A stretch of 64,000 bases of DNA from Marchantia polymorpha subsp. ruderalis (Eukaryota > Streptophyta > Marchantiopsida > Marchantiales > Marchantiaceae): assembly GCA_037833965.1 (NCBI GenBank), contig AP031354.1:12068001-12132000 (forward strand), read 5' to 3'. Shown in pieces: positions 36,632 through 63,172 of this stretch. A program made the position numbers and the translations under genes. Below the pieces are notes generated by a model that did not search any database, was not told where the DNA came from, and saw only the letters and a list, made by a program, of their open reading frames with translations. Each line of letters begins with the position of its first letter. The first letter of the stretch is position 1.

Positions 36632-38162
36632 GAGCTACACCGGGAAACACAACCCCGACCCCGCCCCGACCTCAAACCCCCAACCCTATTCAATCCACTC
36701 TGCCGCTTCTCCACGGTGCTGCCTTCTGTGAGACTACAACCAGCCTCTCCACAGGTCCTGGCGCTTCTAGTCAGCTCGCCCGATCGATCGGTGAATCGGG
36801 CCCGAGGCCTGGATAATCTTGAGCTTCTCCTCCAGCATGTCTTCGATCTACCGCAGAGTGCAGCGATCTGCCGACCAATGCGCCTGCTCTCTTCCTTCCC
36901 CACGCACTTTTAGCCCAGCCGGGTAACGCAGATTCCCCCGTCAACCATTCCGGCAGTCCGTCATCGGAGTACCGCAAGGACCAAACTCCCACGTTCCCAA
37001 TCCGGTTTCCACAACCCTGTACTTTGAAATCCGCCCGATTAACGAAACCGGCTAGTGGTTTTCTCGGTTTCGTTCCAAACTTGCCGCTTCATGCACACAA
37101 AGTGCCTTCCGGGTCCCATCCGAGGCGGCGCGGGTGCGGGTTCAGCTGACCAACCACGGTTGCAAGAAACCCGCGAGTCGCACTCGATTATGACGGCGCA
37201 GCGACAGACAGGGCATTCCAAGACCGGGTCAAAAGAGCAACCGCAACCGCCCGGCCGGTGAAGTCAGAAGGGGCCTCCGCCTCGTGACGATACCGACGGT
37301 CCGCCTTTCCATCCTGACGGGACAGCGACAGCCCGCGACAGACAACCCCCGGAAAACCCGACCTTTCCGAATTGTTTGCCAGAAAAAGAAACGACTCCTG
37401 CTCTAGTGCCCCCTATATTTGACCTACGGAATGGGGGAAAATCTACTCAAATGAACTTTCTCGTGACAGAGCAGCAAAGCAGATTATTACGTGGGAGGAA
37501 ATAATCGACGACGAGTACGCGCGGTCAGATTCTCACGCGTGTGCAGCATGGAACAACGTTCGTGGATTTCCGACAGACCTAACTCGGGTTGGGCGACCGG
37601 GTTAGCGGGGCGAGAGGGCAACTACGTCGCAGGCGACGGGCCGCAGTTGTTGAGCCGAGTCTAGATTCTAGAAGCTGACACAGTCGAGCCCCCACCCCAG
37701 CGCAGGGCAGGCCCCCCGAAGTAGGTATGGCGTAGACAACTGTACGTCACGTAGGCGACCTCGTACCCACTGTTTAGATTCATTCGAGGGGAATATGTGC
37801 GGCTCTGCAAATGATGGCCTTACCCGTCTGCTTGAGGCACCTGATCTCCTGCGGGGGAATGATGGAAAGGTGGACGGGAAGGACAGCTGGTGGAAAGAGG
37901 CGAGGAATGAAGGAAAGGAAGCAAGGATGGAAGGATGGAAGGATGGAAAGAAGATCCAGGGGTCAGAACACACGTCAGGTCAGATCGCGAGGAAGTGCGA
38001 GCTCAGAGTCTGGAAAAGAGTGTGGCCCCTCGGGAAACTGAAGAGTGTGACCTGAACCATTTTGGACGCCCAGAGGGAGAGGGAGGCGGAGGTCTAGAAG
38101 GTCACTAACAATAATCTTAAAGCCGGACCCAAGTTTACAGCTCCGGTATCATTGCCAGGAGA
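36632..38162. promoter_or_regulatory. GC-rich divergent intergenic region between two genes
   Basis: This 1.5-kb gap separates the start of the minus-strand five-exon gene from the start of the plus-strand isocitrate dehydrogenase. It is CpG-rich, with many overlapping short open frames on both strands that are typical of GC-rich non-coding DNA. It must contain the 5' untranslated regions and promoters of both genes. No TATA box could be assigned with confidence. Confidence 0.5.
37924..37949. repeat. Short tandem repeat (ATGGAAGG-type) in the IDH 5' region
   Basis: GGATGGAA repeats about three times within a longer G/A-rich purine tract (37,860-37,960), some 200 bp upstream of the isocitrate dehydrogenase start codon. 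It probably lies in the 5' untranslated region or core promoter. Confidence 0.7.
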
Positions 38163-45300: not shown

Positions 45301-48300
45301 TTTGGAAGCTACTCGACAAGTATTCCTGAAGAGAAGAGATACAAATCACGACTATGTACTCAAACGTTCGACTGCACATGTGAGGTAAAAGTAGAGACAT
45401 TAGAACTAGGAATTTGGCGAAAATCTTGGGATTCGGATCCGGAGTCACCATATCCGTCAAGAGTAAGGCAATACTCCTTCCTGACTGAGGGTAAGTGAAA
45501 TTATTGGGATAGATTGTGCACAGGGCCAAGTGCCAAGTAAGAAGACAGAACTCTACTAGCATTACGCGATAGCAAAATGCCTACTGAAGGGTGAGTTGTT
45601 CATGGTTAGAAGTTAACACTGTGCACTGCTGTCTACAGCCAAATTTTCTCGGAACCAACACCAACAGTTGAATAAACTGCTGATAGCTAAACTGGTGAAA
45701 AAGAGACCATGTTAGATATGCCAAAGCTGAACTTTGGCGGAACTACAGACGCTCACTACAGGTGACAGTTCCCGAAAAAAATGGGAAACTCAACCTCATC
45801 GACTCTCGCTAAACGACAGCTAAACAAAAGGAATCCACATGATTGCGATTTGGTTCTTCAGGTTAATGTTCGCGGACTAGAAGTTGATAAAATTCAGCAA
45901 ACCCAGTTGTGATCCTACAGTGGATCGAACTGGGTCGCTATTACAACTATCAGGTACCATCCGATAGGCAAGATTCTCTCGCGAAAGTCTCTGTGAGGGA
46001 TTGAATAGCGCCTTACACCCATCCTTCGTGATTGACAACTTCGACAACAAGAAAGAGGAGTGAACATAAATAACTCTCATCCTCGCACAATACAAGGGGG
46101 GTGTCAATTCCAGGAGACATGGATCACCCCATCCGACGATGCTGGCAAAATGGGGAGGACCTTCTTCAAACTCTCTCATCCTCGCACAATACCACCAGGG
46201 GGGTGTCAATTCCAGGAGATATGGATCACTCCATTCGACGATGCTGGCAAAATGATGACATCCTGCTTCAAAGTTTCACGATAACGCCGATCACGGGGGA
46301 TTCGAACAATACCACCAGGGGGTGTCAATTCCAGGAGATATGGATCACTCCATCCGACGATGCTGGCAAAATGGTGATATCCTGCTTCAGAGTTTCACAA
46401 TAACGCCGATCACGGGGGGATTCGAACCCCCGACCTTCAGATCCGAAGTCTGACGCGCTAATCCGCTGCGCTACGCGACCCATGTTGTTCACGACAATGC
46501 TGAAGTAATAGTGAGCTTCCGACTTTACGGTAATGGCAACTGCTCCATGCTTGGACAACCACGCACACGTTCCTCGACATGGAAATACTACCTAGAGATG
46601 AACAAAGGCGGGCGCTACAGAAAGGCAAGGGACTCAGCCAAGAATTATGTCCCGCGCACGGGCGCCAAATGAACGTCCTTCATTACTAGAGGAAGCCCTC
46701 GTGAACCATCCACTGCGGGGAAAAGGAAAGAAGGAATCCTGTATTTAGAAAATACAATAGAGAAAGAGACTTTTTGGACAGAAAGCACGATGCGAACCCC
46801 GATCAGGCATTCAAATGCAGAAAGGACAGGTGAAGGACAGGGAGGGCACAATTTTCGCAACGGAATTGTACCCTTCCGGGTGATTTAAGTGAACCCGAAA
46901 TCTGTAGCCAGGACTTACACCCGGGTTACTCGGGTGAGAGCCAACTATCCTAGCCAACTAGACCGACGAATCAAGCATGAAAACAGAGTTGTACAGAATC
47001 AGAAATGAGAATTCCAGTTGTCTGGTTCTCAGGCAAGCGATGGGTGCATTTGAGACTGACTCGAGGCGAAAGTGGGCGCCGTAAGTCTAAAACTGCGATC
47101 GAATATTAGATAAGTCAAGGTGTATGAGGCATAACTAAGTAATACCTCTAAGTTGCTGGGTGAAAAAAAGGGTCTGCAGCCTCTTCTATATCAAATGTAA
47201 TTGCGATTTATAGAGCAAAGAAGTTGAAGTCGGAATTTACTAGCCGAACAGGCAATGCATAAAATACACGTCGAAGATAGGTCACTAAATTAAAACTGAC
47301 GAGGGTGTGAGCACACAGATGATGGAACAGTCCTCAAAGGCTGAAAACACAAGATAAGTCCAAACTTAATGAAAGGTACAACAGTGCGGGAAGAATTTAG
47401 CAATGTCACAATCGTCGACATCAAGAACGATGCTTAGACAAGCAGGACTGGAGAGGGGCCTAAATAATAGACGAAGGCTTCTAGCACGTGCCATACGCAA
47501 CAAATCATCATCGACTGATCATACCCAAGCTACTAATTCAGTTTCATGGAGACTTTCGTCACGTAACGTACAACAGAGGAACGAAGGCATGCTGGCTTAT
47601 CCAGTCCGAAAAGTGAACTAGTGACATTCCAATAGAAAGCAAGACCACCCACCTCAACGTGATTTACACCGTCACCCTCAGACGTGATGATGCAGCCCAG
47701 TAAGTTGTATGCCAAAAATCTTCTCGTCCCAACCGTCTGTTGAGTAACTCCAGGTTGAAAGGCAGGCTGCTTCTCCGGCATCGGTTTGTGGCTAGAATGC
47801 TGCCGAGGTACTGTGTCGTTAAGAGAATCAATCCTGCCCTCTTTCACCTTCACTGAAGCTGAATCCTTGCCCTGAGATACCTTACGAGTTAACCCGTTGG
47901 ATGCCTTTGAATCTCCAAATTCCTTTCTCAACATAGATTCTTCTTCATCGCTCTCGTCGTCCATCAGATCCACCTCAGCTCCAATAATCTCATCTTCACT
48001 GTCCGACGCACTTGCTTTCTCTTCGGCTTCATCATCACTGAAATGCAGGAGCTCTTGCCTAGTGACTAATGAACTCACCTGCTCTAAATCACACGGAGAA
48101 GCTAGATGACTTGGAATGGCATCGTTCCACACACCATACCTTCCTTCGACATCAATAAGTGCCAGAGAATTCCCTGTAGGCTTCCATGCTAAGGCACACA
48201 CCTGTGAGAGAACTTTCAGTCTATCCAGGTCTATCTTTTTCTCGGCGTCCCAGAGCATAACCTTCCTGTCTTCACCTGTGGTAGCGAGGTATTTCCCATT

Positions 48301-49282
48301 CGGAGACCAAGCCAGGAATCCGATAGACGTATTGTGACCACCCCTCATTCGAAAGTGCACTTCGGCTGTATCTCTGTCATACATGACGACGTCAAACTGA
48401 TGGCCCGGGACAGCCAGAACATCACCACTTGGATGCCATGCTATCTGATTCACGCACGGGTCTTCAAGATCCACGTCGGGGGCAGCATGCTTGAGTGTGT
48501 GAACTTTCGCCCCTGTGTCTAAAGACCAATATATGACCGTGCCATCTGTGTCAACAGATGCAAGAAATTCATTTTTCGGGTCGAATGCAAGACTAACAAC
48601 GGGCCCATCGTGCCCCTTCATCACCCGAACTATAGAATTGTCCACCGTACTGATGAGCTTAATACCATCATCGTCCCCTGCTGCTGCAAGCAGTCCGCCA
48701 GTGACGCTGAACGCAAGAGCACGAATTGGCAAGCTAAATCTTGTCACATTGTTCTGAAATGTGGCACCTGCCAAACGCCACGTGACAGTGTTAGTGAGAA
48801 TTTGCAGACTATCAATCGCACAGCTCACATACGATCATTTCATCCTTATGAACCAAACCTCGACGAGATGACAACGAGACCAGGTGAAGTGGGGTGGGGT
48901 GGGTTTGTTATAAAAGATGTGAAGTCCATCCTTTTCTTCTAATGCCATTCAATCCTGACTTGAATGCTCCCCGAATCATCAGTTTGGGAGCGGAAGCTAA
49001 ACACTGCTCTGTGTGCATACCTGGATATGAATAAAGCTTGACAGAGTGATCAAGCGAAGCTGATGCCAAAAGAAGGCCATTCGGAGACAATGCCAGGGAA
49101 GTGACGGCTTTTTGATGCAGAACGCTTGGAGTCAAGGATTCCCCGCCGGATTTATGAATAAGAAGTCGCGCATCAGCACCCGCAGTTATGATATCTTGAC
49201 CCTGATTATCCCACAGAATGCATGCTCGAGGCCCTTTCCCGTGCGCCTCCGTGAACTTCGGATGCTTCGCGGAGACAGACAT
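42353..49282 (-). CDS. CTF4: CTF4/WDHD1 (EOL1-type) replisome adaptor, 12 exons, 985 residues
   Basis: Exons read 49282-49021, 48767-47653, 45199-45026, 44879-44763, 44590-44486, 44328-44194, 44089-44034, 43827-43743, 43585-43469, 43361-43232, 43141-43011 and 42883-42353. Phases agree throughout, giving 2,958 coding bases; the exon 8 acceptor is the least certain junction. Residues 1-310 are WD40 repeats (e.g. LASASLDHSVKLYSYPG, YLATTGEDRKVMLWD). About 330-370 is an acidic linker. About 455-720 matches the SepB middle domain (VEFHDTSRGHRIAPL, PKPVLSILSPMLPLA). About 720-810 is a helical segment (RCLLRLIAACCHGDKLARA), and the tail is basic (KRKNTAVKEKRSDKKPRK). In this family the protein links the CMG helicase to DNA polymerase alpha, and in Arabidopsis the homologue EOL1 helps maintain chromatin marks. 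The HMG box of animal WDHD1 is absent, as in plants. Confidence 0.93.
46085..46406. repeat. Tandem repeat in CTF4 intron 2, incorporating part of a tRNA-Arg gene
   Basis: A unit with GTGTCAATTCCAGGAGA, GGATCACTCCATCCGACGA and TGCTGGCAAAATG occurs three times (landmark at 46,101, 46,203 and 46,322; spacing 102 and 119 bp). The second unit ends in CCGATCACGGGGGATTCGAAC (46,288-46,307), which is the 3' acceptor and T-arm of the adjacent tRNA-Arg gene broken off inside the T loop. It is joined directly to the next unit. The third unit runs into the complete tRNA gene. Duplication therefore spread from the tRNA outward. Confidence 0.85.
46407..46480 (-). tRNA. tRNA-Arg (anticodon UCG), nested in CTF4 intron 2
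   Basis: Read on the minus strand, the 74-nt sequence begins GGTCGCGTAGCGCAGCGGAT and ends CGTGATCG. The acceptor stem has seven pairs including two G-T wobbles. The anticodon stem TCAGA/TCTGA encloses CTTCGGA, giving UCG. The T arm is GGGGG-TTCGAAT-CCCCC. The A and B boxes are intact, and it closely resembles plant tRNA-Arg(UCG). It lies inside the 2,453-bp second intron of CTF4 on the same strand, so two polymerases would read the same DNA. The nearest downstream T4 is about 35 nt away. Confidence 0.9.
46899..46970 (-). pseudogene. Degenerate tRNA-Glu (anticodon CUC) copy
   Basis: On the minus strand the sequence TTCGTCGGTCTAGTTGGCTA, then GGCTCTCACCCGAG and CCCGGGTGTAAGTCCTGG closely follows plant tRNA-Glu(CUC). 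However, the acceptor stem no longer pairs, two anticodon-stem pairs are lost, and the B-box GGTTCAAGTCC has become GGTGTAAGTCC. It is likely a dead copy. It lies in the same CTF4 intron, about 420 bp from the tRNA-Arg gene. Confidence 0.7.
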
Positions 49283-50169
49283 CGCTCCGACGCCGTACGC
49301 CTCTGGACGAGCTCCAGATTTTTAAAAAATGAAACTTGAACTATGAATTCATCGCAAGGCGTACCCTCAGCCTCCAATTCCAGACGCAAAGAGACTACTT
49401 GCCACAAGCTTCTTCCAAATCTCGTGCAATTGTCTAAACCCTCGACCGGACTTCTGACCTTCGCAACCAAAGCGCCTCGCTCTCGCTGTGGTGACTGAGA
49501 AAATTTCGAAATCCGCGAGAAGCAAGAGAGAGAGGAGTTCGTCGACCGCGGAATTCGGGAGAAGTGACAGGCGGGAGAGTCCCGCCATTTTTTCCTTTCG
49601 CGCCAATCTGCTGCACTCACGGAGTCTTAGCCTTTTTCCGTATCTTCTTCATTCTCAGCTTTGACGCTGGCCCACGACCAACGACGTTGTCAAGTCTGTC
49701 CATCGGAAACCTGTTCCTAAATGCCTCAAAACCTCGTTTTGTATGTCCCCGCTAAACGCCGAACATCATACTACATCATAATATAGTATAGTATTCGATG
49801 TACTTAATTGCTCTTCGCTATATAGAACGCAGTTGAATGAATCTCCTCCCCTATTGTAACAACCGCGTTCACTCTTTCAATTTGAATATTTTATCTATGA
49901 TCTATTATGAGTTATCTATAAGGCCAACAACATGCATTGGAAAGATCATTGATATTATCCCAAAAGTCATCAAACTTCTTACTCCAATAACTCTCATGTC
50001 ATGTCATGTTTATGTGTCTTGTCATAAATTATTCTCCATTTTCACCCTTTTGTAACATATATGGAAAATAAATTCAAATAGACGTAATCCTTCTTCAAAT
50101 CTTTTAATTTTGGAAAAAAAAAATCTGTTTTGCTGTCAAAATTAGAAGACTTCAAAAGAAAACTGTTCA
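49283..50169. promoter_or_regulatory. CTF4 upstream region
   Basis: The first 350 bases are GC-richer, with several overlapping open frames on the minus strand (for example 49,186-49,620) that are out of frame with CTF4. They probably belong to the 5' untranslated region and promoter. From about 49,760 the sequence changes abruptly to AT-rich DNA, marking the edge of the gene island. Confidence 0.45.
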
Positions 50170-51007: not shown

Positions 51008-51518
51008 ACTTATTCTATTGACTCATGGCATCCGGATCCTTGGACTTGGTTGAACCTGATATTCGATATGTCCCTTCCCTTATCTGATTAGTCAAATGTT
51101 TTTAAAAGTAAAACCTTTTGCGTAGGAGAGTGTTACTGGCTATTTGACTTCCACCTTAGACCTGAAGTCAAATTCACCGTTGTTGCGCACAGTCCTTGGC
51201 AGTGCAAGGCCTTGGAATTACATTTTCATCAGAAGTAGATTTAAGAATTATGTCAAATTAATGATTACCAATTTTTTGTGTACTTTTTAATATTATACCA
51301 TAATAATATCTATAATAAAAAATAATACTCAAGAAAAAATATTCATTTTTTTATAGGTTACAATATTTTAAAATTGTAACATGAATGCTGGCAAAGAGTT
51401 TTTTTTATCGGTTTTGATTTTTCACATAGTGTTATTTATCATTTTCATATGACTTTCAAATCAAAATACATGATTATAGACATTCAAAACAAAACCAACA
51501 AGAAAATATGAAAATATG

Positions 51519-51620
51519 TCGGTATCGCTATACATCATACATCGCTGACATGCTCTACTCACAACTCACACATACATACATAAGGAACGAGAGTGTACAC
51601 TCACAAAGTTATCACAACTA
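51519..51620. repeat. Direct repeat A, copy 1
   Basis: The block beginning TCGGTATCGC and containing TGACATGCTCTACTCACA and ACGAGAGTGTACAC recurs at 51,897-51,996 with few changes. The two copies bracket repeat B, giving the order A-B-A at the left edge of the retrotransposon block. The AT-rich host sequence stops at about 51,515. Confidence 0.88.
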
Positions 51621-51621
51621 A

Positions 51622-51892
51622 AAAGATAATAATATAATCGTCGAAACACAAGGTACACGAGTCGAGCCAAACTCACTACACTAAAGTAGGATAAGAGTCG
51701 AAGCTAATGGGAAGAATCCTGACGCCTAAGGCTCAACTCGAAGAACTAACAGTTCTTCGAGCTCGCCTTCAATATAACCTGAAAAGTGTCGACTCAATTC
51801 TAACGTAACTCGCGTCTCAACGTTAGCCGATCCTACAACGTGCCTCCGACTCAAATCTAAATTCAACGTGCACACACGTGAAAGCTGTCGTG
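51622..51892. repeat. Direct repeat B, left copy (candidate LTR-derived)
   Basis: About 270 bp, co-linear and roughly 90% identical by eye with 62,902-63,172. Shared blocks include CGTCGAAACACAAGGTACAC, GAAGCTAATGGGAA and CCTACAACGTGCCTCCGACT. The two copies are in the same orientation at opposite edges of the GC-richer block, 11.28 kb apart, as expected for LTRs or LTR pieces of one insertion. However, the neighbouring A repeat has no partner on the right. Confidence 0.85.
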
Positions 51893-51896
51893 CAAC

Positions 51897-51996
51897 TCGG
51901 TATCGCCATTTATCATACATCGCTGACATGCTCTACTCACAACTCACACATACATACATAAGTAACGAGAGTGTACACACACAAAGGTATCACAAC
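51897..51996. repeat. Direct repeat A, copy 2
   Basis: Second copy of the block at 51,519-51,620 (offset 378 bp). It lies between repeat B and the 3' end of the gypsy coding region. The 378-bp offset means that A plus B behaves as a partial tandem duplication. Confidence 0.85.
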
Positions 51997-52154
51997 TTGC
52001 CTTCTAGCTAGCGGTCAGGTCCCTTTAACTCCCAGGTAGCCCTATCTACAACTACATGCTATGCACCTTAATGGGTGCGCGAACCAATAGGCCGGGTGCT
52101 ATGTAGCCCCATCATTAGTCGCCTATCTGCAATTCATAACATGTGAAGATCAAG
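51997..52154. other. 3' non-coding part of the gypsy element
   Basis: About 160 bp between repeat A and the stop codon of the PHD-finger frame. It would hold the 3' untranslated region and polypurine tract of the minus-strand element. No clear purine tract could be fixed. Confidence 0.35.
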
Positions 52155-52496
52155 TCATCTACCCTCTGAAGTACATCGAGGACAAACCCACCTTTCAGTA
52201 GGAACAACGTCGATAGGTGGAGTCAGGCACAATATGTGCCATCCCCTAGAACACCTATCACACACCAACATGTTGGCCGCCTGATTAGCTGACCCACATA
52301 ACATGCACCTCAAGCCGGCACGTACAATCGCCAGGCTTGAGTCCATAGTACCATCCACGTTTGGAAAGTGGCATGGTGCACAGTTGCGCACATGATCCTT
52401 CAAAACGACATCGTCACGACCCTTCAACATGAGCACTCCAAAAAGTAACACCTCTCGCACTAGCAAGATAATGCGTCCTGCCATCACATCCAACAT
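52155..52496 (-). pseudogene. PHD zinc finger at the C-terminus of the gypsy polyprotein
   Basis: The frame contains a complete C4HC3 pattern: CMLC, then CDRC, WHILC, and CPRC before the terminal TSEGR and a stop. The core reads MLVCDRCSRGWHILCL, then PTERWVCPRC, which is a canonical PHD finger. In other proteins PHD fingers bind histone H3 tails, often reporting K4 methylation state. It lies just downstream of the integrase C-terminal region, the place where chromoviruses carry a chromodomain, so a role in choosing integration sites is a reasonable inference. The finger itself has all zinc ligands and no internal stop. Confidence 0.88.
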
Positions 52497-52556
52497 AGTC
52501 GGTGCAGTCTGCTGTAAATAGACGTAATCTCTCGCACGGAACCTACGAATTGATGG

Positions 52557-52910
52557 TCAATGACCTCCTCCTCGAATAGTTGCATACCACAACGTACCCA
52601 TGTGCTGAGCAATCACAAGGTTCTTAAAGGCTGCAGGCATAACTTTTCGAAAGAGCACTGCACGTTGAGAACACACTCTCATCCACATATCTGGATCATC
52701 AAGGTTCACCACCTCGCTAGATTCACGACGAATCGCTGCAGGCAAGTCTGGATCTCGGCCGTACAATAGAAAATATGGTGAAAACGAAGCCAAGGATGCT
52801 TGACGACTGAATCGATATCCCATGGCCAACCATGGTAACTGAAAATCCTAGTCCCCAAGATGCCCCTTCTGTAGGTCATACTTGCGCAACGCTCTCTTCG
52901 CCGTCTGTAC
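52557..52910 (-). pseudogene. Integrase, C-terminal portion (downstream of the inserted solo LTR)
   Basis: The sequence resumes the integrase after the inserted LTR. TVQTAKRALRKYDLQKG begins immediately inside 52,910 in one frame, followed by LPWLAMGYRFSRQASL and SPYFLLYGRDPDLP. These are hallmarks of the gypsy integrase region after the catalytic core. One stop (between GHLGD and DFQLPW) interrupts it. The frame ends in a stop before the PHD-finger frame. Confidence 0.82.
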
Positions 52911-53770
52911 TGTAAGACCGGGTGTTGCACATATGTACTAGGTCTTAAAACTGGTCAAGTGATTAAGGATGATTAGCCAAGGCATAGCTAAGACTAGCTA
53001 GTTATGACTAAACTTATTAGTTATAACTAAATTTATCTAGTCATGACTAAGTTTAGCTACCATGTCTATAGTTGGCGGAATAATTAGCGGAGTTCTAGAA
53101 GAATGGAGTGAGCACTTCTATTTTGTCTTTTATAAGGAGTGAGCACTTCTATTTTGTCTTATACAAAAGTTCTAGATTCCAAAGGATTAGATATTTGACT
53201 AGAAGCTTGGATTTGATTGGTTTAACTAAATGTATGAAAGATGATTGGCTAGACTAAGTCTAATGTTGACTTAGTGGCTAGGAAGCTTGTAGAAGTTTAA
53301 AAGCTTCCAATGGCATGTCGCCACCTCAACCTTGGATTCCGGAAGCTTCTAGAAGTTTTAGGTAGGCCAATGGCATGTTGCCACATATAGGGGGTTAGTC
53401 AAACTTACCTAGGTAAAAGTAAGTTAGGAGAAATTACCACATGTTACTATGGTAACTTCTCAAGTAGTATAAATAGAGAGGTAGAGTAGCACCTCTCAAG
53501 CAAGTTTGGAGAGTCATGTGTGAGGACTTGTTTCAGGAATGAAGGAGTGAAGTTTTTGAGTATCTTGGAGTATCGACGTGTGTTTGCGTTTGTGTGAAGA
53601 GAGTGATGTGAGGAGAGTTTGTGTGTGAGTTGGAGTGATACATGGAGAGTTTGTGAGAGAAGGTGTTTGGGACATTAGTGTGAGGATGAATCCTAGTCTT
53701 CTAGAACCATGATGCGCTACCGCAAAGCCATCAGAGGTAAACCTGAGTGAGAGTCAGCCCGGAGGTTGCA
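52911..53770 (+). mobile_element. Solo LTR (860 bp) inserted in the gypsy integrase
   Basis: The segment starts TGTAAGACCGGG and ends GGAGGTTGCA. It interrupts an otherwise continuous integrase sequence (ADGLAER | TVQTAKRALRKY). The four bases GTAC flank both sides, consistent with a target duplication (one base short of the usual five). It contains a TATAAATAG box on the plus strand, so the LTR is oriented opposite to the host element. An internal duplication of GGAGTGAGCACTTCTATTTT occurs near 53,106 and 53,140. It is the same LTR family as 22,587-23,339 but much less decayed. No interior is present, so recombination between two LTRs is inferred. Confidence 0.85.
53468..53476 (+). promoter_or_regulatory. 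TATA box of the solo LTR
   Basis: TATAAATAG is followed by AGAGGTAGAG, about 300 bp before the LTR end. The aligned position of the older copy has TATAAGTAG followed by AGAGTTAGAG (23,078 onward). Conservation in two copies supports promoter function. Confidence 0.7.
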
Positions 53771-54510
53771 GTACAACCCGCTCAGCCAAACCATCAGCCA
53801 AACCATCCGCCTCTGGATGATCTCGGAAAGTAGTCTGGTGATCAATCAGCGTCTTGTCACACAAGACCAGAAACTCACCTTGGAACTCTGTCCCTTGATC
53901 GGTCAACACCTCAGCTGGTGCACCAAAGTGACTAAGCACCATGTCAAGAAAAGCATACGCTACTCCCTCACTCGCCTTGTCAGGTAATGCCACCAACTCA
54001 ATCCACTTGGAGAAATGCTTCACCATCATCACACATACCGATGATGTCGTATAATCAAAGGCAGTGGTCCAGCAAAGTCTAAACTCCAACGGTAACCCAA
54101 TCCCATGATAGATAAGGGATGTAACTATGGTGTCGGGGCATTCAACGATGTCCTCACTCGATCACAAACCATGCAACGTGATACCAACTGCTGTACCTGC
54201 GTATGCATATCACACCACCAATATTGACCAAGGAGTAAGTTGTACGTACGCTTCACTCCAAAATGTCCCAACTCCTCATGAGCATGCCTCACAATGCGTG
54301 CTCTGTGAGATGGATGGGGTACTACTCGTACCCTACCGTCCTCCCACACTCGGAGAACATGTGATCCCTCCAATCGGTATGTCTTCGCCCGCTGGAGAAC
54401 ACGATCTCGCTCCTTGGCACCCATTGTGTCTGGCACCATACTGGTCCGTAGGAACTCCAACACCAAGACATCATCCTGAACATCACGCTAATCCACACCA
54501 CCATCCTCAA
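53771..54510 (-). pseudogene. Integrase zinc domain and catalytic core of the gypsy element
   Basis: The zinc-binding region has the HHCC ligands (HAHEELGHFGVKRTYNLL, then CMVCDRVR) at about 54,235-54,150. The core follows with HFSKWIELVALPDKASEG, then the second and third catalytic positions in LTDQGTEF and HPEADGLAER. A frameshift and stops near 54,090 separate zinc domain and core, and a TAG lies at 54,490-54,488. The core is cut at its end by the solo LTR. Confidence 0.88.
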
Positions 54511-54526: not shown

Positions 54527-55993
54527 CTAACTATCTACTCTCTGACTAGAGTAAGATGTTAAGTGGTCCTCACTTCTAGAGGCTTCACGTAACCAACACA
54601 TGAAATCAGATGCATGCCAACCGGGCACCATCTCCTCATCAACCTCACCATGCCACCTAGCTCTAGTGTCATCCTCTTGGCTAGTGCATGGGTTCCGACT
54701 CAAACCGTCAGCATCCAAGTTCGCAATTCCATGCCTATGCACCACCTTAAAGTCGTACTCCTTTGAGATTAGAGCCCACCGTGCAAGCTTCCATGTGAGC
54801 TTGTCGGACTCCATCAACCACTTGAGCGGCTGATGATCAGTAACAAGGGTGAACTCTGTACCAAACAAGTAACACCGGAAGTGTGCCACAGCCCACATCG
54901 CTGCCAAACACTCTCCCTCGTTCGAACTATACCGCGACTCTGCTACATTGTTCGAACGACTAGCGTACGCAACCACAAACTCCTTGCCCTCATCATCACA
55001 CTGCGTCAACACCGCTCCAAGTTCCAACATACTCCAATCAGTGTGCAACTAGTATGTACGACCTCTGACAGGTCTCCTCAAGATGGGAGCGGCCACCAAC
55101 TTGGCCTTGAGCTCAACAAAAGCTCTCACCTGCTCATCTCCCAATTGCCACTCCTGATCCGACTTCAGCAACTGGTTCAAAGGATTCGCTATAGCGCTCA
55201 ATCCCTTCATATACCTCCGTTAATAGTTCGCCAAACCCATGAATGCACGAACTCTACTCATATCCGCTGGACGAGGAATGCGCGCAATAGCATCCACCTT
55301 TGCTTGTTGAACTCCCAAACCACATGGGTAGATCACATGACCCAAGTACTCCACCTTGTCCTAGAAGAACCTACACTTCCCAGGATGTAACCGCAAACCA
55401 TGAGCCCTCAACCGCTCAAGCACAATCTGCAAATGTATATGGTGTTGCTTCACCGTGTCGCTAAACACCAAGATATCATCAATGTAACATCTAACGAAAT
55501 CTAGCCCCGCTAGAATTTTGTTCATCACTCTCTGGAACTCGGCAGGTGCATTCTTCAACCCAAAGGGTAAGAATCGCCACTAATACAAACAATCCTTACA
55601 GTGGGAATTGACACTCCAAAATGCTGTCTTGGCCTTGTCCTCCTCCCGATTCGGCAACTGATGGTATCCTGCCCAAAGATCCAAAGTACTAAACATCCTC
55701 GCATGTCCCACCACATCGAAGATCTCCTCAGATGTAGACATGACATACTTATCGGCCTTCGTCTGCCGATTGATAGGACGGTAGTTTCCACACATGCGCC
55801 TATCCGTGTAGTTGCCATGTACATCCTTCTTCGCCGGCATAATAGTGGCTGAAGCATACTCACCATGCGACAACTCCACTAACCCAGCCTCCAATAACTC
55901 CAACGTTCGACTCCGAATCAAATCCCTTTCCATATCACTATATCGACAGGGACGACGGAAGATTGCCGTATCACTAGCCAACTCTATCCGCAT
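54527..55993 (-). pseudogene. Reverse transcriptase and RNase H of the gypsy element
   Basis: Reverse transcriptase runs from about 55,993 to 55,200. Its motifs are KDVHGNYTDRRMCGNYRPIN, FSTLDLWAGYHQLPN, FLPFGLKNAPAEFQRVMN and the catalytic box CYIDDILVFSD, followed by HPGKCRFF. RNase H (55,048-54,620) shows LHTDWSMLELGAVL, YSSNEGECLAAMWAV and VTDHQPLKWLM. Stops occur at 55,580 (between Y and WRFLPFGL), 55,361 (CRFF/DKVEYLGH), 55,220 (ANY/RRYMKGL) and 55,049 (before LHTDW). The first, second and fourth are where a Gln codon is expected, so CAG-to-TAG is likely. Catalytic aspartates remain. Confidence 0.93.
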
Positions 55994-55999
55994 GCCGGG

Positions 56000-56419
56000 T
56001 CAAATCAAAGTACCCAACTCCTTCATACTGAAGGCAAAACAACTCCTATAGTCACGTAGGAATTGTGTCAACCGTCGTCTCTCTCCTCCGGTGATCTGAG
56101 AACCAATCAATGGCTCCCACTCCTCCTCCATGGACACACAAGAGTGAGGCGATACTGCCATTGGTTTCTATGCCACATCCTTCAAAGAAGGGCTCTCCGT
56201 ATCCTTCTTCGTAGCAAACTCCACGTGACCAACATCTCCAACTGCATGGGGGGCCACTCTAGCAAGTCCTCTCGTCATGTCCCATGAACTCCAAGGAAGA
56301 CGAATATCTCGCTTGTCGCTCCCAACCATTGCCACTACCGTCCCGATAGGCAATGAGCTAACAAGTGGTGTAACAACCACCAAATCAACGCACAAACGGC
56401 GTTGCTCGGTCAAGCCCAA
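56000..56419 (-). pseudogene. Gypsy polyprotein linker between methyltransferase and reverse transcriptase
   Basis: The frame continues past the methyltransferase to a stop at 56,168 and resumes with SITGGERRRLTQFLRDY-type sequence ending FAFSMKELGTLI just before the reverse transcriptase. The latter segment (RSCFAFSMKELG) is the usual lead-in of gypsy reverse transcriptases. A TGA lies between GTLI and PGMRIELA. No separate domain is recognised. Confidence 0.6.
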
Positions 56420-57375
56420 GCTCACAATCCATGTCAAGCAGTTCAGGTTCATAGCCTGAACCAAAACCTGACAACGCAAAGCCTCTGAAACTGAAGAAGC
56501 CGCGGTCACACTAGTTATAAATCCCATCGCACGCTCTCTCTCATCGGCTTTGGGCTCCACCAACTGATGTAGGGTACTGTTCCACAGTAGTCCAGGTTCA
56601 TCATCACGATATGCATGTGATGCCGGATAACTAACTAACGTAGGTAAAGCCATCCGATGCTGACCTACGCGGTTCATCGACGCCATAGGTGACATGTCAA
56701 CAACTCTTACCACCTGAGAGTATCGAGAGATATCCAAGATCTTGTCAACGGTGAGTGTAGGATCGCGATGCACAGAATCATACGCATGACGCAATATCTC
56801 TCGTGGCACATGGTTGGTCCACCATAAACGTGCACGATGAGCACGTGAACCAACCCTCGCAGCATCCAAACAACACTGCTACTCCAATTCATGCCCTGAC
56901 CGCATGGACACTCGCCATCAACTGAGCCCGAGTGTCATCCAACAATGGTACGTTCTCTATAATGTTTGCTGGAGAACGTATCTGCTGCTCCTGGAGATGA
57001 CGTAACACTCGTAACATCTCCCAAAACATCCGAGATCTGGGGTCATGCAACCCTTCTCCATGCCCAGCGTGTGTGTGCCCTTGACATGGTCATCCCGCAA
57101 TCACCAAATTGATATGTCCAACTCGATCAAGGTCTGGCGCCCCCAACAATGAAATGTCTGAAGGCAACGCATTCTGGTATCCTTGAATAGCTGATCGCGG
57201 CAACAACAAAGAAAAACGCTGCATCAACTGTGTGACATGTTGTGAAGAAACTCGAAGTGCAGTCTCGTCCTTCTCCACGTACAAGTATCTACGTACAAGA
57301 ATACCTGACTGCAACATTACAGCCAAACCCGTGCTGATCCCCCCAAAAAGATCCAGCAAACAAACAACCTCTTGG
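56420..57375 (-). pseudogene. C5-cytosine DNA methyltransferase domain inside the gypsy polyprotein
   Basis: The domain has the C5-MTase motifs in conventional order. Motif I is LLDLFGGISTGLAVMLQSG (about 57,368-57,306), the AdoMet-binding loop. Motif IV follows INLVIAG as PCQGH, with the catalytic Cys present. Motif VI is NIIENVPLLDD. Motif VIII is SRAHRARLWWTN. A recognition region leads to ERERAMGF, and motif X is QVLVQAMNLN. The residue before PCQ, normally Trp or Ser, is a TGA (57,092-57,090). A further frameshift and stop lie near 56,890-56,870, so this copy is inactive. The motif order (I before IV before X) argues against the rearranged plant DRM type and resembles DNMT3 or prokaryote-like enzymes. 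It sits between protease and reverse transcriptase in the same strand and polyprotein. Confidence 0.92.
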
Positions 57376-57757
57376 GAATACTCCCATACGATAGGTGTAG
57401 TAACTAATGGTGATAGCGTGCTAGGACCACATACTAGCCGACTACCTGAGACTTGCTTTGCCTCTGCTGGTAAAGAGGCCTCACTCCAGGCGTTCTTCAC
57501 CAACCGATCAGCCTCCTGCTGTAATGCGAGGCAAGAACTCCAAAGTGGTACATCCAACGGTGATGACACTGTCGCCGCAAGGCTCACAATCTCCTCCACC
57601 TCCTCATGGACTGGAGTATCATCGGCTGACCTGTTCCTCTCTAACAAGTCATCAGGCCGTGTAAGCACTCCACTCAAACCCGCAACGGAGGCTAAAACCG
57701 CAGGAGAAGATCTAAGAGGTCGATCTCGAGAAATAAATCTCACCGCCAGCTCACTCA

Positions 57758-58753
57758 TACGTCCATTGCCGGACTGCCGGCCAGGGCGATAAGCAACCGT
57801 CTCTGTTCAAAATCCATCCGAAATCCCATCAGATATAACACAGCTCCACCAACAAGCACATCATATGACTCTGCTGATGTAATTACCGCCTGAACTCCAA
57901 ATTGCGAGCTATCACAAGCATGATCATGCCTCAACTGCACTGATATGCACTCTCTGGTCATCATGTAAAACCTATCGCTGGTGCCACCGAGTGATGTCTG
58001 AATCTAGAACGGACAAGGCTTCAAATCGAACCTCCAAACTTCCAAACTAATGCAGGCTGTCTTGCCCAACATCAAGGGTTGTGCACTAGAATCCAACAAC
58101 ACTCTCGCTGGGACATACACCTGCTCTGTAGCACTCACCAAGCGAAATACACCACTCCAGTTGTCCACCATACACACACCAAGGACAACCCTCTCACGAT
58201 CAATGGCTGGTTGAGCTAGTAAGGACTCCATCTGCGCCGCTACCGCCTGCCATGTCGACTCATCGCTCAATGTCGTCGTAGAGGATAGCTCCTCAACAAT
58301 AGCCTCACCTATCTCGGCACTCGTAGCAGTGATACTCTCACATTCACACAACGTGGCTGCTGAACGAAATACACGGGCCAAGTCAAGCCCAGAGTCTATC
58401 AGCTCCGTAGCTGAAAATAATGGACATCTCATCATTGAAGCCGCCAACCGCATCACTGCACTAAATTGTGTGTCAATGTCCACAACACGTGACGTAGATG
58501 TCTCAGTCCTCCCAATAGGATCACTAGGTGGTGCAGGTCTCATGGACAACAACAAAAATGACTGAGGAAGTCTGGCATGTCGTCCACCCTCATCCCTCTG
58601 AGAGTCCAACTCCACGGTCGCCCCTAGTGGCTCTGAAGCGCGCGCAATACCTCTAGTCATTGCAACCGATGCCTTCACCTGCGCGGCACTCGCCAAATAG
58701 GAGAAATTTTCTTCCTCGTAAGAAGTGGAAGTGCTCGCCCTAGAAGTCGCCAT
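57758..58753 (-). pseudogene. Aspartic protease region of the gypsy element
   Basis: The frame 58,753-58,004 ends with VYVPARVLLDSSAQPLMLGK (about 58,125-58,065), which matches the retropepsin active-site region LLDSGAQPxMLGK with the Gly replaced by Ser. The continuation in the next frame contains SAESYDVLVGGAVLYLMGF (57,860 area), matching the later retropepsin segment YDVLIG. A stop after LKPCPF separates the two. The N-terminal 200 residues have no recognised domain and may be gag/protease linker. Confidence 0.75.
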
Positions 58754-58774: not shown

Positions 58775-60194
58775 CTACTCAATCCGGTCAGCCATCGCGC
58801 TCTCTGTGACCGAAGTAGCACTTGCTGCAATGCGTCCAACTACACCGGCACCTCGACCACCTCTACCACGGCCACATCGGCCTCGAGAAGCATCACCACC
58901 ACGACCTCTACCACTAGATGTCAACTCTAGATGAAGGTCAAAACACCGATCTCGAGTATGACTTGCTCGACCACAGTGGTCACACACCACCTGTGCTGAC
59001 TGGGGTCTGGCCTGTGAACTCCGATCTCCGGCCACCTAGGGACAATCTCTCTGCAGATGATCCCCTCCACAAGTCCAACATGCTAGTCCCTGCTGCTGAC
59101 CAGCAAACGACGGCACTGGTGCACGTGCTCCTATATCTTTAGCGGCCGTCTGATGTCGTGTCTGCGCTCCGCGACCCCCACCACTTTCACCACCAAAGTC
59201 TAGACTGTGCCGTGCTCTGCAAGACACGAGGGGTAGTGGTCGTGTCTCTAGCGAATGAAGATGTCACCACTCTCTCCTCCACTATGTGAAGCTCTATCTT
59301 CTCAGAAAGAGCAAACACATAGGCCAATGTCGGTGACATATCGCTCAAGAGGGTAGCATCCCGAACCCTCCGCCGTAGCTCTCTGTCCAGTATCATGTAC
59401 CAATACTGAACCGCCTATGCCTCAGTTACACCGTGAGTAACTGAGATCAACCGCCGCATACAAATGTATGCCTCCTGAAGACTCTCACCAGTCTTCTGCT
59501 CAAACTCCTAGAGACTCATCAACTTCTCCGTCCTCAGCCCTGATAGTTCTTCCTCAACCTCTTGAAGAACTCAAGAATAAGGCTGAATGAAGGTACGCCA
59601 GTAGTCTCTCCACTCATGATGGCAACGCTAACAGCACCGTTGGTGGTACCTGCTCCACTAGTACCATCGGTGATGCTACCACTCGCACCTCCACTAGTAT
59701 CAACACCACCCTGGGTGATCGACATATAGTTTGGAGACCAATGACGTCTCCATGCGTCAATCCTCCACAGCATACTCTCTCCCAAACTCATGATAGTCAT
59801 TCATGGGAGGCCCCTCTAGATGCTGAAACAACCCCTTCCATGCAAAGAAGGGTGTAAACAACGTGGGGTTACGCAAGAACTGCATATCGCACCACGTGTC
59901 AAACTCATGGATGAAATCATCCAACTCAATGGTGCCCACTGTACCAGAGTACCGCCGTGGGCCCTTCATGGCCCCGTACATACCGTCCATGTCCCCAATC
60001 CACGAATGTGAGACACCAGATGATATCACCATCAAAGATCCGCTATCTGCCACACCTCGTGCCTTTGCAACCACTGCTGCGCTAGGATGAGGTAGCCGAT
60101 ACCTCAACCCACTCCGCGTAAATCCTCCACGGTCCTCAACGGAACCACCAAACTCCTTCGTGATGACTAACTCACCAACTGGCAGCACTGCCAC
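58775..60194 (-). pseudogene. Gag of the gypsy element with two zinc knuckles
   Basis: Fragments in several frames encode a capsid-type region (MAVLPVGELVITKEFGG to FAWKGLFQHLEGPPMNDYHE, 60,194-59,757), then LILEFFKRLRKNYQG, and YMILDRELRRRVRDATLLS, then AYVFALSEKIELHIV (59,396-59,290). Two knuckles follow: CWTCGGDHLQRDC (spacing CX2CX3HX4C) and CDHCGRASHTRDRC (CX2CX4HX4C), then an RGRGG-rich stretch. Frames change at least four times, so the gene is dead. Confidence 0.85.
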
Positions 60195-60945
60195 AACTCC
60201 ACATGCCCTCGTCCATGCACTAACCTGCTGCTAGCCCTACTGACTATGGGTATGGGCAACCTAACCTTTCATCACCGCAAGAAGACTCTCATGGTCCACT
60301 GGTCATCACTCCAGTCTCACCATGAGAGAAACAAAGATAGGCGCCAGTGATCAAATCCAGCCGCACTATCGACATCACACTAGAGTAAAACTACTCCAGA
60401 AATCAACGTCAAACCAGACATGGGCGCACATCAAGAAGCCTGACTGGAGAGGATCCAAACACCAGCAAATAGCTAGCAACGACATTTCCAGCCAAAATGA
60501 AACACAGCACAGAACAACACAACACACGGAACATCGCCTCGCATCGCGACCCCGAGTCAAACTCCATCGCCTCCTATCATCCTTCGCCTACCGCGCCGGC
60601 AGCGCTATCTCGCTCATCCCGTTGCAAAGATGATATCGACCCTTCCGTCTCCAACACCTACAATGTCACCTCTTCCACTCAGTCGCCAAGAGACTCTACA
60701 CATCGAGGTGTCCAGTACTTCGCCTCATACATCCACTTCACACTACAAATAGGTGCAACACATATAACAAATAGGAAAAAACATGTCTACCCTAACTGTT
60801 CCCCATAGACAAAAGAGAGAGATATCAATAAAAAAAAATTCAATATTTTCACTACCAGAGAATCATAGTAAGTGAGACGAGTGCAAATTCTCAATCTCTT
60901 CAAAATATTTTTCTTCTCTTTTTTTTTTTCTTTTTTTCTTTTAAT
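60195..60945. other. Presumed 5' leader of the gypsy element
   Basis: About 750 bp upstream of gag on the minus strand without a supported gene. It ends in an AT- and pyrimidine-rich tract (60,900-60,955). A weak primer-binding-site-like TGGCGCC occurs on the minus strand near 60,346-60,331, but no LTR end could be matched to it. Confidence 0.4.
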
Positions 60946-61868
60946 TTAAGAAAGAGAATGATTCTTATACAAGAAAGTCTACATTCTACGCTCTCCAAAG
61001 CTGTGCAAAGTGGTTGACATCACTTCTCAAGTACCTATTTTACAACAACTATCCAACTGCGGGACATCAACTTTACAGTGGAAAACTCATGGCTTCAGCT
61101 GATCTATGTACAAATCTGGCTTCTGACATGAATGACTGTACAATGTCAGCAGTCTGTAAGTTCAACCAGGAACGTTCCTTCGAGATAGAAAACGCTTTTG
61201 ATCTCAACTGCTATTTAACACAGAAAAGCAGTGAGCAAGATCTCAACCCGGCAAACACATTCAACTTCAGTTATTCCAGTGCAAGGAAAAAAGGAACATT
61301 GTACAGCGAATATGTGGAGATGTTTTGGCATCCGCTTGCTCCCAGCAATACAACTAACTGATCTACAGAAAGAAAAACTTTACCCACAACCAGAAGAGTT
61401 GCTGCAAGATACATTCACCACGGATATGAACATAAGCTGAGAGACGCAAGCTTCTCTGCAGTCGATCGAAGAGAATATTGGTTCTATTTGGTACAATTAG
61501 AAATACAGCGCTGCAACTACTGGTCTCCAAAACAGTCCACAGTCTATTTGGTAAGTGTTGTGGCGAATCTTTGAGTTGTTTATCTGGCTTCAAGTGCAAC
61601 TTTCTTCCTTCACTCCACTCCAAAATGTGGTCCGATTTCAGACTTCAGTTCACCCGAAGATATACTGAAACCAGCAGTACCAATTTTCCTTCGGCCCGAA
61701 TTCAGATATCACTTTGATTCAGAAAAGCAGTCTTTTCTACCTTTCGAGCGTTTCTGGTGCTTCATTTCCCGGTTCAGTGATGTTCTACGCATGCATAGTA
61801 CAGACTCCCGAGTATCCTCAGTAATTAAACCCGACTTCCACGATATAGCAACCCATTCTGTCTAGCAG
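60946..61868 (+). pseudogene. Long plus-strand reading frame with two in-frame TGA codons, unidentified
   Basis: One frame stays open for about 300 codons from after the TAA near 60,945 to a TAG at about 61,864, except for TGA at 61,359 and near 61,572. Random DNA of this composition would give many more stops. The translation is protein-like, for example LRDASFSAVDRREYWFYLVQ and, near the end, VPIFLRPEFRYHFDSE, then SFLPFERFWCFISRFSDVLR. A GTAAGT donor (61,550) and several AG sites around the second TGA would allow it to be spliced out. It runs antisense to the gypsy element, in what would be its leader. No family is recognised. It may be a captured or host gene remnant. Confidence 0.45.
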
Positions 61869-62901
61869 TTTTAATTCGACTCAGATCTTGATCTGCTTAT
61901 ATGCTTGTGTCTTAGCTACGATGTTTACTGATTTGCTCTTCGCAAACTCATATCTTGAACCAAATGACATCAGCAACCACATGCCAAAATGATGGCCTTT
62001 CATTCGCATGTGTTTCCGAAGCTACAACGGACCGCCATCAAAGCGCTTCTGTCTGCACTATGCACTTTCTCAACGATGGTCCTCGAAAGTCTGAAAGTAG
62101 CTCAATACGCCAGCTACCAGTAACTTTCAGTGCTTGATCTTCCGGTTTTTAATGACAACGATTGACACTGTGAAGATGTAACAATTTTGAAGAGTTTAGA
62201 ACTGTCTACAATTCCAAATTGTGCCTACGATTCTTCAGATCTCCATACTTGCGGTTTCGCAGGATGAAGTGACCACATCCTCAACTCACGCACGAGCATG
62301 CACTTGAATGCTTCTTGGCCATCGGAGCACCGAACGACGTGCCTATGCCAGCGCTCGTGGATGAGAATGATCTCTGCCCGAAACTTGAGCCACCGCGCAC
62401 TTTCTATTTCAGACACTCCTGCTCCATATATACACGAGTCTGCAGCCTCTGTTCGCGTTTCAAGTCACCCTCGAAATACTCCAAGCAATGCTAACATCCT
62501 GAATCTGAGAGTGCACTTTTGATTCTTCTGGTGCTGTCCAAAGTTGTACTTATCAGCAACTCCTATTTGCCTGCTTTTTGATCCTTCTGGTGCTGTCCGA
62601 AGTTCCACTTGTCGACAACTCATATTCGCCTGCTCTTCCATGATATAGAGGATGTGAACCGATGCTTGTGTACTCAGGAACACAAGCACAGATTTCTCGT
62701 CACGCTTTCCCCCACATCACCATCGCACAAATCAACACCCACGACTGACACACTCAACGACGAAAAACTTCATGCAGAAATCTAATCCGCAAAAGCAAGA
62801 ACCAAAACCTGAATTATAAAATCTAACCAAAGTAAATGCAACTACAACCTAAACCTGAAACTCTCATTGTCAAATGCCACGAAGTGCAGTTCTTTGAGTA
62901 A
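61869..62901. other. Moderate-GC region with coding-like fragments on both strands
   Basis: On the minus strand 62,416-62,225 reads protein-like (SARWLKFRAEIILIHERWHR, then LVRELRMWSLHPAKP) to a stop. A frame-shifted upstream piece (YFEGDLKREQRLQTRVYMEQ) could belong with it. On the plus strand 61,955-62,137 and 62,298-62,522 are also open. Without splice evidence none can be called a gene. If the gypsy insertion extends to repeat B at 63.17 kb, this DNA is part of its interior. Confidence 0.35.
62521..62638. repeat. 59-bp tandem duplication
   Basis: GATTCTTCTGGTGCTGTCC at 62,521 recurs as GATCCTTCTGGTGCTGTCC at 62,580, each followed by related AAGTT...CTT...CAACTC...TTGCCTGCT text. The two copies have diverged moderately. 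Confidence 0.8.
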
Positions 62902-63172
62902 AATCATAATAACATAATCGTCGAAACACAAGGTACACGAGTCGAGCCAAACTCACTACACTGGAGTAGAATAAGAGTCGAAGCTAATGGGAAAAATCCC
63001 GACACCTAAGGCTCAACTCGAAGAACTGACAGTTCTTCAAGCTCGCATTCAACATAACCTGAAAAGTGTCAACTCAATTCTAACGTAACTCACGTCTCAA
63101 CATTAGCCGACCCTACAACGTGCCTCCGACTCAAATCTAAACTCAACGTGCACACACATGAGAATTACCGTG
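62902..63172. repeat. Direct repeat B, right copy (candidate LTR-derived)
   Basis: Partner of 51,622-51,892 in the same orientation. After it the sequence switches immediately to AT-rich DNA (from about 63,175), so it marks the right edge of the GC-richer block. Differences from the left copy are mostly transitions (for example CTCGCGTCTC versus CTCACGTCTC). Confidence 0.85.

What the first reader, a model, noticed from the sequence alone, without database searches (positions are those of the whole stretch)
56420..57375. A Ty3/gypsy retrotransposon that carries its own cytosine DNA methyltransferase
Seen directly: C5-MTase motifs I (DLFGGISTGL), IV (PCQ), VI (ENV), VIII (RARLWWTN) and X (QVLVQAMNLN), in conventional order and in the same orientation, between the protease and reverse transcriptase of a gypsy polyprotein. 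From established knowledge, as I recall it, retrotransposon-borne methyltransferases have been reported in dinoflagellates and the charophyte Klebsormidium, so the principle is known but rare. I cannot tell whether this lineage has been described. Inference: the element methylated its own DNA, either to reduce harm to the host or to escape detection by the host.
Basis: partly seen in the sequence, partly recalled or inferred. Interest (0 to 1): 0.95.

Follow-up and report, generated by a model that had tools for sequence, protein, structure and literature searches.

The report
Liverwort retrotransposon carrying DNA methyltransferase gene
A jumping gene family that is common in the liverwort Marchantia carries its own DNA-methylating enzyme, apparently made along with its shell protein, and relatives in mosses and green algae suggest that this pairing is old and widespread.

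Summary
The minus strand (about 57401-56393) encodes a DNMT3-class cytosine methyltransferase between protease and reverse transcriptase of a Ty3/gypsy element; this copy is broken. It is a native domain, not an insertion: 119 copies were scored in the host genome (Marchantia polymorpha), 26 with an open first frame of at least 1348 aa. The principle is published (KnitGypsy-Dnmt3, Klebsormidium, de Mendoza 2018).

New here. (1) In 30 of 30 fetched copies a UAG with a tobacco-mosaic-type readthrough context separates Gag-protease-MTase from RT-RNaseH-integrase-PHD, so the MTase should be made at Gag level. (2) Sphagnum and Closterium relatives share this order; chlorophyte and many metagenome relatives carry the MTase between RNaseH and integrase. 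The 48 element MTases sampled form one clade apart from DNMT3, favouring one capture and one relocation. (3) Repeats run A1-internal-B1-A2-B2 with 4-bp target duplications (5 of 5), suggesting integration from a circle. (4) The 5' leader varies and in 2 of 5 copies holds spliced host mRNA. (5) A Chlamydomonas-containing clade keeps the domain without catalytic residues. MTase dN/dS between lineages is about 0.11. Methylation of its own cDNA is inferred, not shown.

The parts
62899..63163 (-). A1: 5' repeat of the element (holds the TATA box and inferred transcript start in open copies)
   Evidence: equivalent of A1 in five full copies. Flank TAAT at the 5' side against TATT at the 3' side, 3 of 4 bases alike, read by eye
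62887..62898 (-). Primer-binding site CTCAAAGAACTG (open copies CTCGAAGAACTG), complementary to a stretch inside A in 4 of 5 full copies: inferred Tf1-like self-priming
60728..62886 (-). Variable 5' leader; parts are found elsewhere in the host genome at 86-90%, origin not settled for this copy
58780..59990 (-). Gag with two CCHC knuckles (broken); limits read by eye
   Evidence: match to open copies; mapping
57750..58160 (-). Protease (DSG of open copies reads DSS here); limits and identity by eye and by relatives, no Pfam hit
56393..57401 (-). DNMT3-class C5-cytosine methyltransferase domain; broken by TGA at 57092-57090 and a frame change near 56900-56870
56168..56170 (-). In-frame TAG between Gag-PR-MTase and RT-INT-PHD (open copies TAG CAA YYA; here TAG AAA CCA)
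55180..56100 (-). Reverse transcriptase (broken); limits approximate
54527..55180 (-). RNase H
   Evidence: RT_RNaseH E=1.6e-30
53794..54487 (-). Integrase, H2C2 and first part of rve core
   Evidence: Integrase_H2C2 1e-15, rve 9.1e-9
52911..53793 (.). 883-bp stretch absent from three open copies, inside the integrase of this copy
   Evidence: the match to C2a, C8a and C6a is interrupted exactly here
52308..52910 (-). Rest of integrase
52173..52307 (-). PHD finger at the end of the polyprotein
   Evidence: PF00628 E=6.5e-11
51886..51997 (-). B1 repeat, directly after the polypurine tract
51620..51883 (-). A2 repeat
51517..51619 (-). B2 repeat, 3' end of the element (ends GACA)

Best explanation
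It is a decayed copy of a Ty3/gypsy retrotransposon family, abundant and with many open copies in Marchantia polymorpha, whose ancestor captured a DNMT3-class cytosine methyltransferase long ago. Gag, protease and MTase form one frame that ends at a UAG in a tobacco-mosaic-type readthrough context; occasional readthrough adds RT, RNaseH, integrase and a PHD finger. The MTase is therefore packed at Gag level into the particle. There it most likely methylates the element's newly made cDNA, so that new insertions arrive already methylated. Shown: domain identity, position, copy number, conserved stop context, purifying selection, repeat layout, target duplications. Inferred: readthrough itself, packaging, activity on cDNA, and the benefit.
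For: PF00145 in an existing open copy. Profile of 51 element MTases against PDB: DNMT3A 1.9e-17, DRM2 4.9e-6 (4onj, which I recall as tobacco DRM, 9.4e-9), HhaI 3.8e-4. Model of moderate quality; the 50 best PDB matches listed are all DNMT3 chains, TM-scores near 0.5-0.6. 119 scored copies of 630 candidates, 26 with a first frame of at least 1348 aa and no stop in the match. TAG in 30 of 30 fetched copies, CAA next in 30 of 30, YYA third in 28 of 30; these 30 are the best-scoring of the 119. dN/dS of the MTase 0.11-0.12 between L001 and L023/L030, RT 0.06-0.07, the 75-codon tail before the stop 0.83. Catalytic Cys kept in 143 of 154 aligned element MTases, Glu of ENV in 146 of 154. One MTase clade, 100/100, apart from two DNMT3 and five phage enzymes. 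Two SymbioDIRS-Dnmt3 enzymes methylate CG in yeast (PMC5890265, section 10).
Against: No methylation, expression or protein data for this family were seen. The closest published relative, KnitGypsy-Dnmt3, gave no activity in yeast; its authors call that inconclusive. Motif X is divergent and the C-terminal half of the model has low confidence. A clade including Chlamydomonas lost the catalytic residues yet keeps the domain, so the domain may have a non-catalytic role. A clade of four related elements lacks the MTase and persists. Pooled over pairs, pN/pS of the RT start is 0.50, higher than the MTase (0.21-0.28), at least partly because some rows such as L013 misalign there.
Confidence: 0.6

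Rival explanations
1. The MTase acts mainly without catalysis, as a DNA, RNA or chromatin binding part of the particle (as DNMT3L does beside DNMT3A), and methylation is secondary or lost.
For: Chlamydomonas reinhardtii P0246 and relatives P0252, P0257, P0265, P0266 keep a full-length domain without Cys of motif IV and without ENV; P0241 and P0245 look alike but their alignment there is unsure.
Against: 143 of 154 sequences keep Cys and 146 of 154 keep the ENV Glu; purifying selection on the Marchantia domain is strong.
Confidence: 0.2
2. The MTase methylates host DNA near insertions or the element's RNA, not its cDNA, serving silencing and tolerance by the host.
For: RNA targets are discussed for SymbioLINE-Dnmt in PMC5890265; a PHD finger on the integrase could place the complex on chromatin.
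Against: The sequence class is DNMT3, not DNMT2; no direct evidence either way.
Confidence: 0.2
3. MTase inserted later as a separate piece into one copy, or a chance resemblance.
For: None found beyond the missing hit of the broken pieces.
Against: Same place in the six long copies read, in the 30 fetched copies upstream of the same TAG, and in Sphagnum and Closterium relatives.
Confidence: 0.01
4. MTase captured twice from DNMT3-like host genes, once at each position (before RT; after RNaseH).
For: Two positions that track the RT tree; only two DNMT3 rows were used as comparison, both on long branches, which the program warned about.
Against: All 48 element MTases sampled form one clade, 100/100, with DNMT3 and phage enzymes outside, and type II nests among type I with modest support.
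Confidence: 0.12

Closest known systems
KnitGypsy-Dnmt3 of Klebsormidium nitens (de Mendoza et al. 2018, PMC5890265; abstract, sections 9-11 and find passages seen)
   Same: Gypsy domain set, DNMT3-class MTase inside the polyprotein, repeats described as DIRS-like, purifying selection on the MTase (Ka/Ks < 0.2 there, 0.11-0.12 here between lineages)
   Different: Other host group; readthrough stop after the MTase, PHD finger, 4-bp target duplications, captured leaders and chlorophyte relatives are not mentioned in what I saw ('PHD', 'split direct' and 'liverwort' occur 0 times in the main text). The K. nitens sequence itself was not compared.
SymbioDIRS-Dnmt3 and SymbioLINE-Dnmt of dinoflagellates (same paper)
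   Same: Retrotransposon-borne cytosine MTase
   Different: Unrelated element classes; DIRS uses a tyrosine recombinase (recalled); independent captures according to that paper
Tf1/sushi-type self-primed Ty3/gypsy elements (recalled)
   Same: Sequence after the 5' repeat complementary to the inferred 5' end of the transcript (4 of 5 copies)
   Different: No chromodomain found; split repeats; MTase
PAT/Ngaro group with split direct repeats (recalled)
   Same: A1-internal-B1-A2-B2 repeat order
   Different: Those use a tyrosine recombinase; here rve integrase and 4-bp target duplications
Host DNMT3-like gene of Marchantia (G000:C6:12459417-12460271)
   Same: DNMT3 class, usual motif order
   Different: Host gene in at least two open blocks, read as exons; element MTases form a separate clade

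Membership tests
KnitGypsy-Dnmt3 lineage | Ty3/gypsy pol domains (RT, RNaseH, rve integrase) | tested here: met
KnitGypsy-Dnmt3 lineage | DNMT3-class MTase inside the polyprotein | tested here: met
KnitGypsy-Dnmt3 lineage | DIRS-like repeat structure | tested here: met
   A1-int-B1-A2-B2 in 5 of 6 long copies examined; no such repeats found for C6b
KnitGypsy-Dnmt3 lineage | Purifying selection on the MTase | tested here: met
   0.11-0.12 between lineages; pooled pN/pS 0.21 for 19 stop-free copies, 0.28 for all 30
KnitGypsy-Dnmt3 lineage | Sequence relatedness to the K. nitens element itself | not tested
   no protein named as K. nitens was among the listed hits, whose lists are capped
C5 DNA methyltransferase, DNMT3 class | Motifs I, IV (Cys), VI (ENV), VIII (RxR) in usual order | tested here: met
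C5 DNA methyltransferase, DNMT3 class | De novo CG methylation | not testable with these tools
   needs an assay
Chromovirus (chromodomain Ty3/gypsy) | Chromodomain at the integrase end | tested here: not met
   PHD finger there, no chromodomain hit at E <= 0.1
DIRS/PAT/Ngaro | Tyrosine recombinase | tested here: not met
   rve integrase; no recombinase hit in either frame at E <= 0.1; 4-bp target duplications

The most novel reading that the evidence does not exclude
One capture of a DNMT3-type enzyme by a Ty3/gypsy ancestor founded a clade present in chlorophyte algae, charophytes, mosses and liverworts. The clade moved the enzyme once within its polyprotein, makes it at Gag level through a readthrough stop at least in Marchantia, lets its integrase act on a circular cDNA at the palindrome GACAGCTGTC, carries host mRNAs in its leader, and in one algal branch turned the enzyme into a catalytically dead DNMT3L-like part.
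Probability: 0.4. Interest if true: 0.85.

Novelty: new variant of a known kind. Interest (0 to 1): 0.72.

Why it matters
A retroelement that brings the very enzyme class hosts use to silence retroelements is a puzzle published for one charophyte and for dinoflagellates. Here many open copies are found in a genetically tractable land plant, so the question whether and why an element methylates its own DNA becomes directly testable. The wider clade gives natural comparisons: MTase before RT, MTase after RNaseH, catalytically dead MTase, and MTase lost. The repeat layout with integrase-type target duplications is an unusual replication problem in itself, and the captured host mRNAs make the family a natural source of shuffled genes.

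Tried and rejected
MTase as a late insertion: rejected by the copies. DRM origin: rejected, motif order is conventional and DNMT3 scores best. Ordinary pair of long terminal repeats: rejected, B1 and B2 flank A2 and the target duplications sit outside A1 and B2. RNA families in the element: none at gathering score. Viral contigs with relatives: one scan, three pattern matches, none confirmed. (dN/dS) is void, as reverse-strand loci had not been turned; one search replaces it.

Rows dropped before counts; 7 type I rows (Sphagnum not among them), 6 without MTase, 8 named type II rows and a random 45 of the others, of 122 type II candidates; no outgroup, so its root is a midpoint; short search. 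P0121-P0130 (Marchantia near-copies) left out, named type II plus a random 42; the Marchantia row is in twice under two names; a hand-picked 48 of 154 element MTases; 4 of its 19 type I labels (P0001, P0002, P0014, P0035) were set by me from similarity, as these short proteins do not show where RT lies; 5 of 6 phage loci fetched were used (L053, a split gene, left out); the program warned of two long DNMT3 branches that meet and of unlike letter make-up in several rows. P0191-P0302 were found with a type II query, so the excess of type II is partly by choice of query. Protein lists are capped: 120 of 133 hits, 70 hits with only 7992 candidates scored, 120 of 911. P0271, type II, is labelled a bacterial metagenome bin by its source; I take that for a binning error. 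C9a splice check: 7 of 10 gaps gave GT-AG by a simple search; the C3 source of C5a gave 0 of 3.

Full report
OBSERVATION. The copy is broken: a TGA stands before PCQ at 57092-57090, and the frame changes near 56900-56870. Its pieces alone do not reach PF00145; with X at the faults PF00145 gives E=2.6e-8. An existing open copy reaches it unaided (E=9.7e-9).

HOST AND COPIES. The window lies in a 241-Mb, 9-contig genome. The MTase of one open copy is 99.4% identical over 170 residues to a Marchantia polymorpha protein, and another is 100% identical over the searched region to Mp_4g09160, so the host is M. polymorpha or very near it. The genome search scored 119 of 630 candidates and lists 119 matches; I count 26 with a first open frame of at least 1348 aa and no stop in the match. 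The finding's stated refutation therefore fails.

ANATOMY. Six long copies were read as they stand. All six have a first frame of 1362-1365 codons (Gag, two CCHC knuckles, protease, MTase). After one TAG in the same frame, 4 of 6 have a second frame of 1045 codons (RT, RNaseH, H2C2 and rve integrase, PHD finger); in C6b it is 906 codons and in C9a it is interrupted (domains). Pfam names RT, RNaseH, integrase, PHD and MTase; gag and protease rest on eye and on relatives with a Pfam protease. The TAG is present in 30 of 30 fetched copies, followed by CAA in 30 of 30 and a YYA codon in 28 of 30; these are the best-scoring copies. UAG-CAR-YYA is, as I recall it, the tobacco mosaic virus readthrough consensus. 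The 75 codons before the stop evolve loosely (dN/dS 0.83 between lineages, pooled 0.57-0.60) while the stop context hardly changes. I infer programmed readthrough, with the MTase on the abundant Gag side.

REPEATS AND INTEGRATION. Five of six copies show A1 (251-297 bp), internal part, B1 (about 113 bp), A2, B2; none was detected for the sixth, C6b. All five have perfect 4-bp target duplications just outside A1 and B2, termini TGTC and GACA, and GACAGCTGTC at the B1/A2 joint. The polypurine tract lies before B1. The sequence after A1 (CTCGAAGAACTG) is complementary to a stretch inside A in 4 of 5 copies, each time 28 bases after TATATT; C6a has one mismatch. This points to Tf1-like self-priming. 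Taken together, reverse transcription should yield repeats of the form B-GC-A, while the integrated ends lie inside that repeat; the simplest route is a two-repeat circle opened by integrase at the palindrome. This is inference from geometry. The Klebsormidium element is also described as having DIRS-like repeats and gypsy domains (PMC5890265, section 9).

LEADER. Between the primer site and about 600-700 bp before gag the five copies and the window differ over most of their length; C2a and C8a share about the first 320 bp. Leaders are not unique to a copy: that of C8a recurs at 99-100% in two other places and that of C2a at 97-98% in two. In C9a the leader matches, block by block and colinearly, a host locus at C2:12864177-12868309 with 10 gaps missing, 7 of which show GT-AG by a simple search; its frame has the LZ3wCH domain, E=2e-18, as in MND1/HOP2 (recalled). 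In C5a a host locus at C4:17219302-17221775 lacks 3 of 3 GT-AG introns, and a further stretch matches C3:11796600-11797484 in pieces, 0 of 3 with clean GT-AG. In C6a 1.3 kb matches C9:6906466-6907778 at 98.6-99% as one block, with a sub-threshold nucleoside-transporter hit in antisense. C2a and C8a carry blocks also found elsewhere, whose origin was not settled. So 2 of 5 full copies carry spliced host mRNA. Template switching during reverse transcription is the likely cause; it is known in principle for LTR elements (recalled).

CLASS AND DESCENT OF THE MTASE. A profile of 51 element MTases finds DNMT3A at 1.9e-17, DRM2 at 4.9e-6 (4onj, recalled as tobacco DRM, 9.4e-9) and HhaI at 3.8e-4. The model (mean pLDDT 59.5, pTM 0.59) has DNMT3 chains as its 50 best listed matches, with TM-scores near 0.5-0.6 and rmsd of 7-8 A for most. 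The host's own DNMT3-like gene is separate. Of 182 longer proteins P0121-P0302 (two are fish DNMT3B), 123 have the MTase after RT and RNaseH (type II), 13 before RT or RNaseH (type I), 32 end after protease-MTase, 6 have no MTase, 8 are partial or MTase alone. Named type I hosts: Marchantia, Sphagnum, Closterium; named type II hosts: Haematococcus, Chlamydomonas, Tetrabaena, Monoraphidium. Calypogeia, Riccia and M. paleacea also carry MTase relatives, whose full order was not mapped. The RT-RNaseH tree, without an outgroup, splits 7 type I from the rest at 99. The MTase tree rooted on five phage enzymes puts 48 element MTases in one clade at 100/100, DNMT3 outside, type II as one clade at 100/100 within a type I grade of modest support; a tree without phage rows had both types as one side each, 88 and 82. 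One capture, probably before RT, and one move is the simplest reading. Only two DNMT3 rows were used, both on long branches.

SELECTION AND CATALYSIS. MTase dN/dS is 0.11-0.12 between L001 and the divergent L023 and L030, RT 0.06-0.07; pooled pN/pS of the MTase is 0.21 in 19 stop-free copies and 0.28 in all 30. Against a simple reading, the pooled value for the RT start is 0.50; at least L013 misaligns there. Cys of motif IV is kept in 143 of 154 and Glu of ENV in 146 of 154. The exceptions include P0246 of Chlamydomonas and P0252, P0257, P0265 and P0266, which have neither and invite comparison with DNMT3L. A clade of four MTase-free elements (P0222, P0230, P0253, P0288) nests inside type II, so loss also occurs.

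FUNCTION. I hold it most likely that the MTase, packed with Gag, methylates the fresh cDNA, so that the insertion looks like host DNA or is tamed at once. The yeast assays of others show CG activity for two dinoflagellate retroelement enzymes, and none, inconclusively, for the Klebsormidium one. Nothing here measures activity.

LITERATURE. Ten searches of the open-access library showed no title or abstract start that describes this element in Marchantia or the chlorophyte relatives; some lists were cut (15 of 26, 12 of 20, 15 of 1098), and subscription papers and preprints are not held. PMC5890265: abstract, sections 9-11 and find passages seen. PMC12344493: find passages only; it says DNMT3 members sit in retrotransposons of streptophytes and dinoflagellates, citing the 2018 paper. 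PMC10538959: find passages only. All other papers: search listing only.

Noticed in passing
L039:5802-7671 (-), L033:1420-3450, L031:1365-3600; window 60728-62886: The 5' leader varies between copies and holds host sequence; in two of five full copies it is spliced host mRNA (one with an LZ3wCH domain, as in MND1/HOP2).
   Followed up: partly
P0246, P0252, P0257, P0265, P0266 (P0241 and P0245 less surely): Elements of Chlamydomonas and metagenome relatives keep a full-length MTase-like domain without catalytic Cys and ENV: a possible DNMT3L-like pseudoenzyme in a retrotransposon.
   Followed up: partly
window 52173-52307 and relatives: A PHD finger ends the polyprotein where chromoviruses have a chromodomain; it is found in 109 of the 182 longer proteins examined.
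   Followed up: partly
window 52911-53793: 883-bp stretch within the integrase, absent from open copies, with short internal repeats at 53105-53166 and 53281-53384; identity unknown.
   Followed up: no
window 27323-29770: Cluster of direct and inverted repeat copies of up to several hundred bases, mostly 72-79% alike.
   Followed up: no
window 38121-39722 (+): Open 533-aa frame that looks like an NADP-isocitrate dehydrogenase without introns (by eye, not searched).
   Followed up: no
window 47533-49321 (-): Frames that look like a WD-repeat CTF4/WDHD1 gene (by eye, not searched).
   Followed up: no
window 14927-15526 (+): Frame that looks like a Ty1/copia pol remnant (by eye, not searched).
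   Followed up: no
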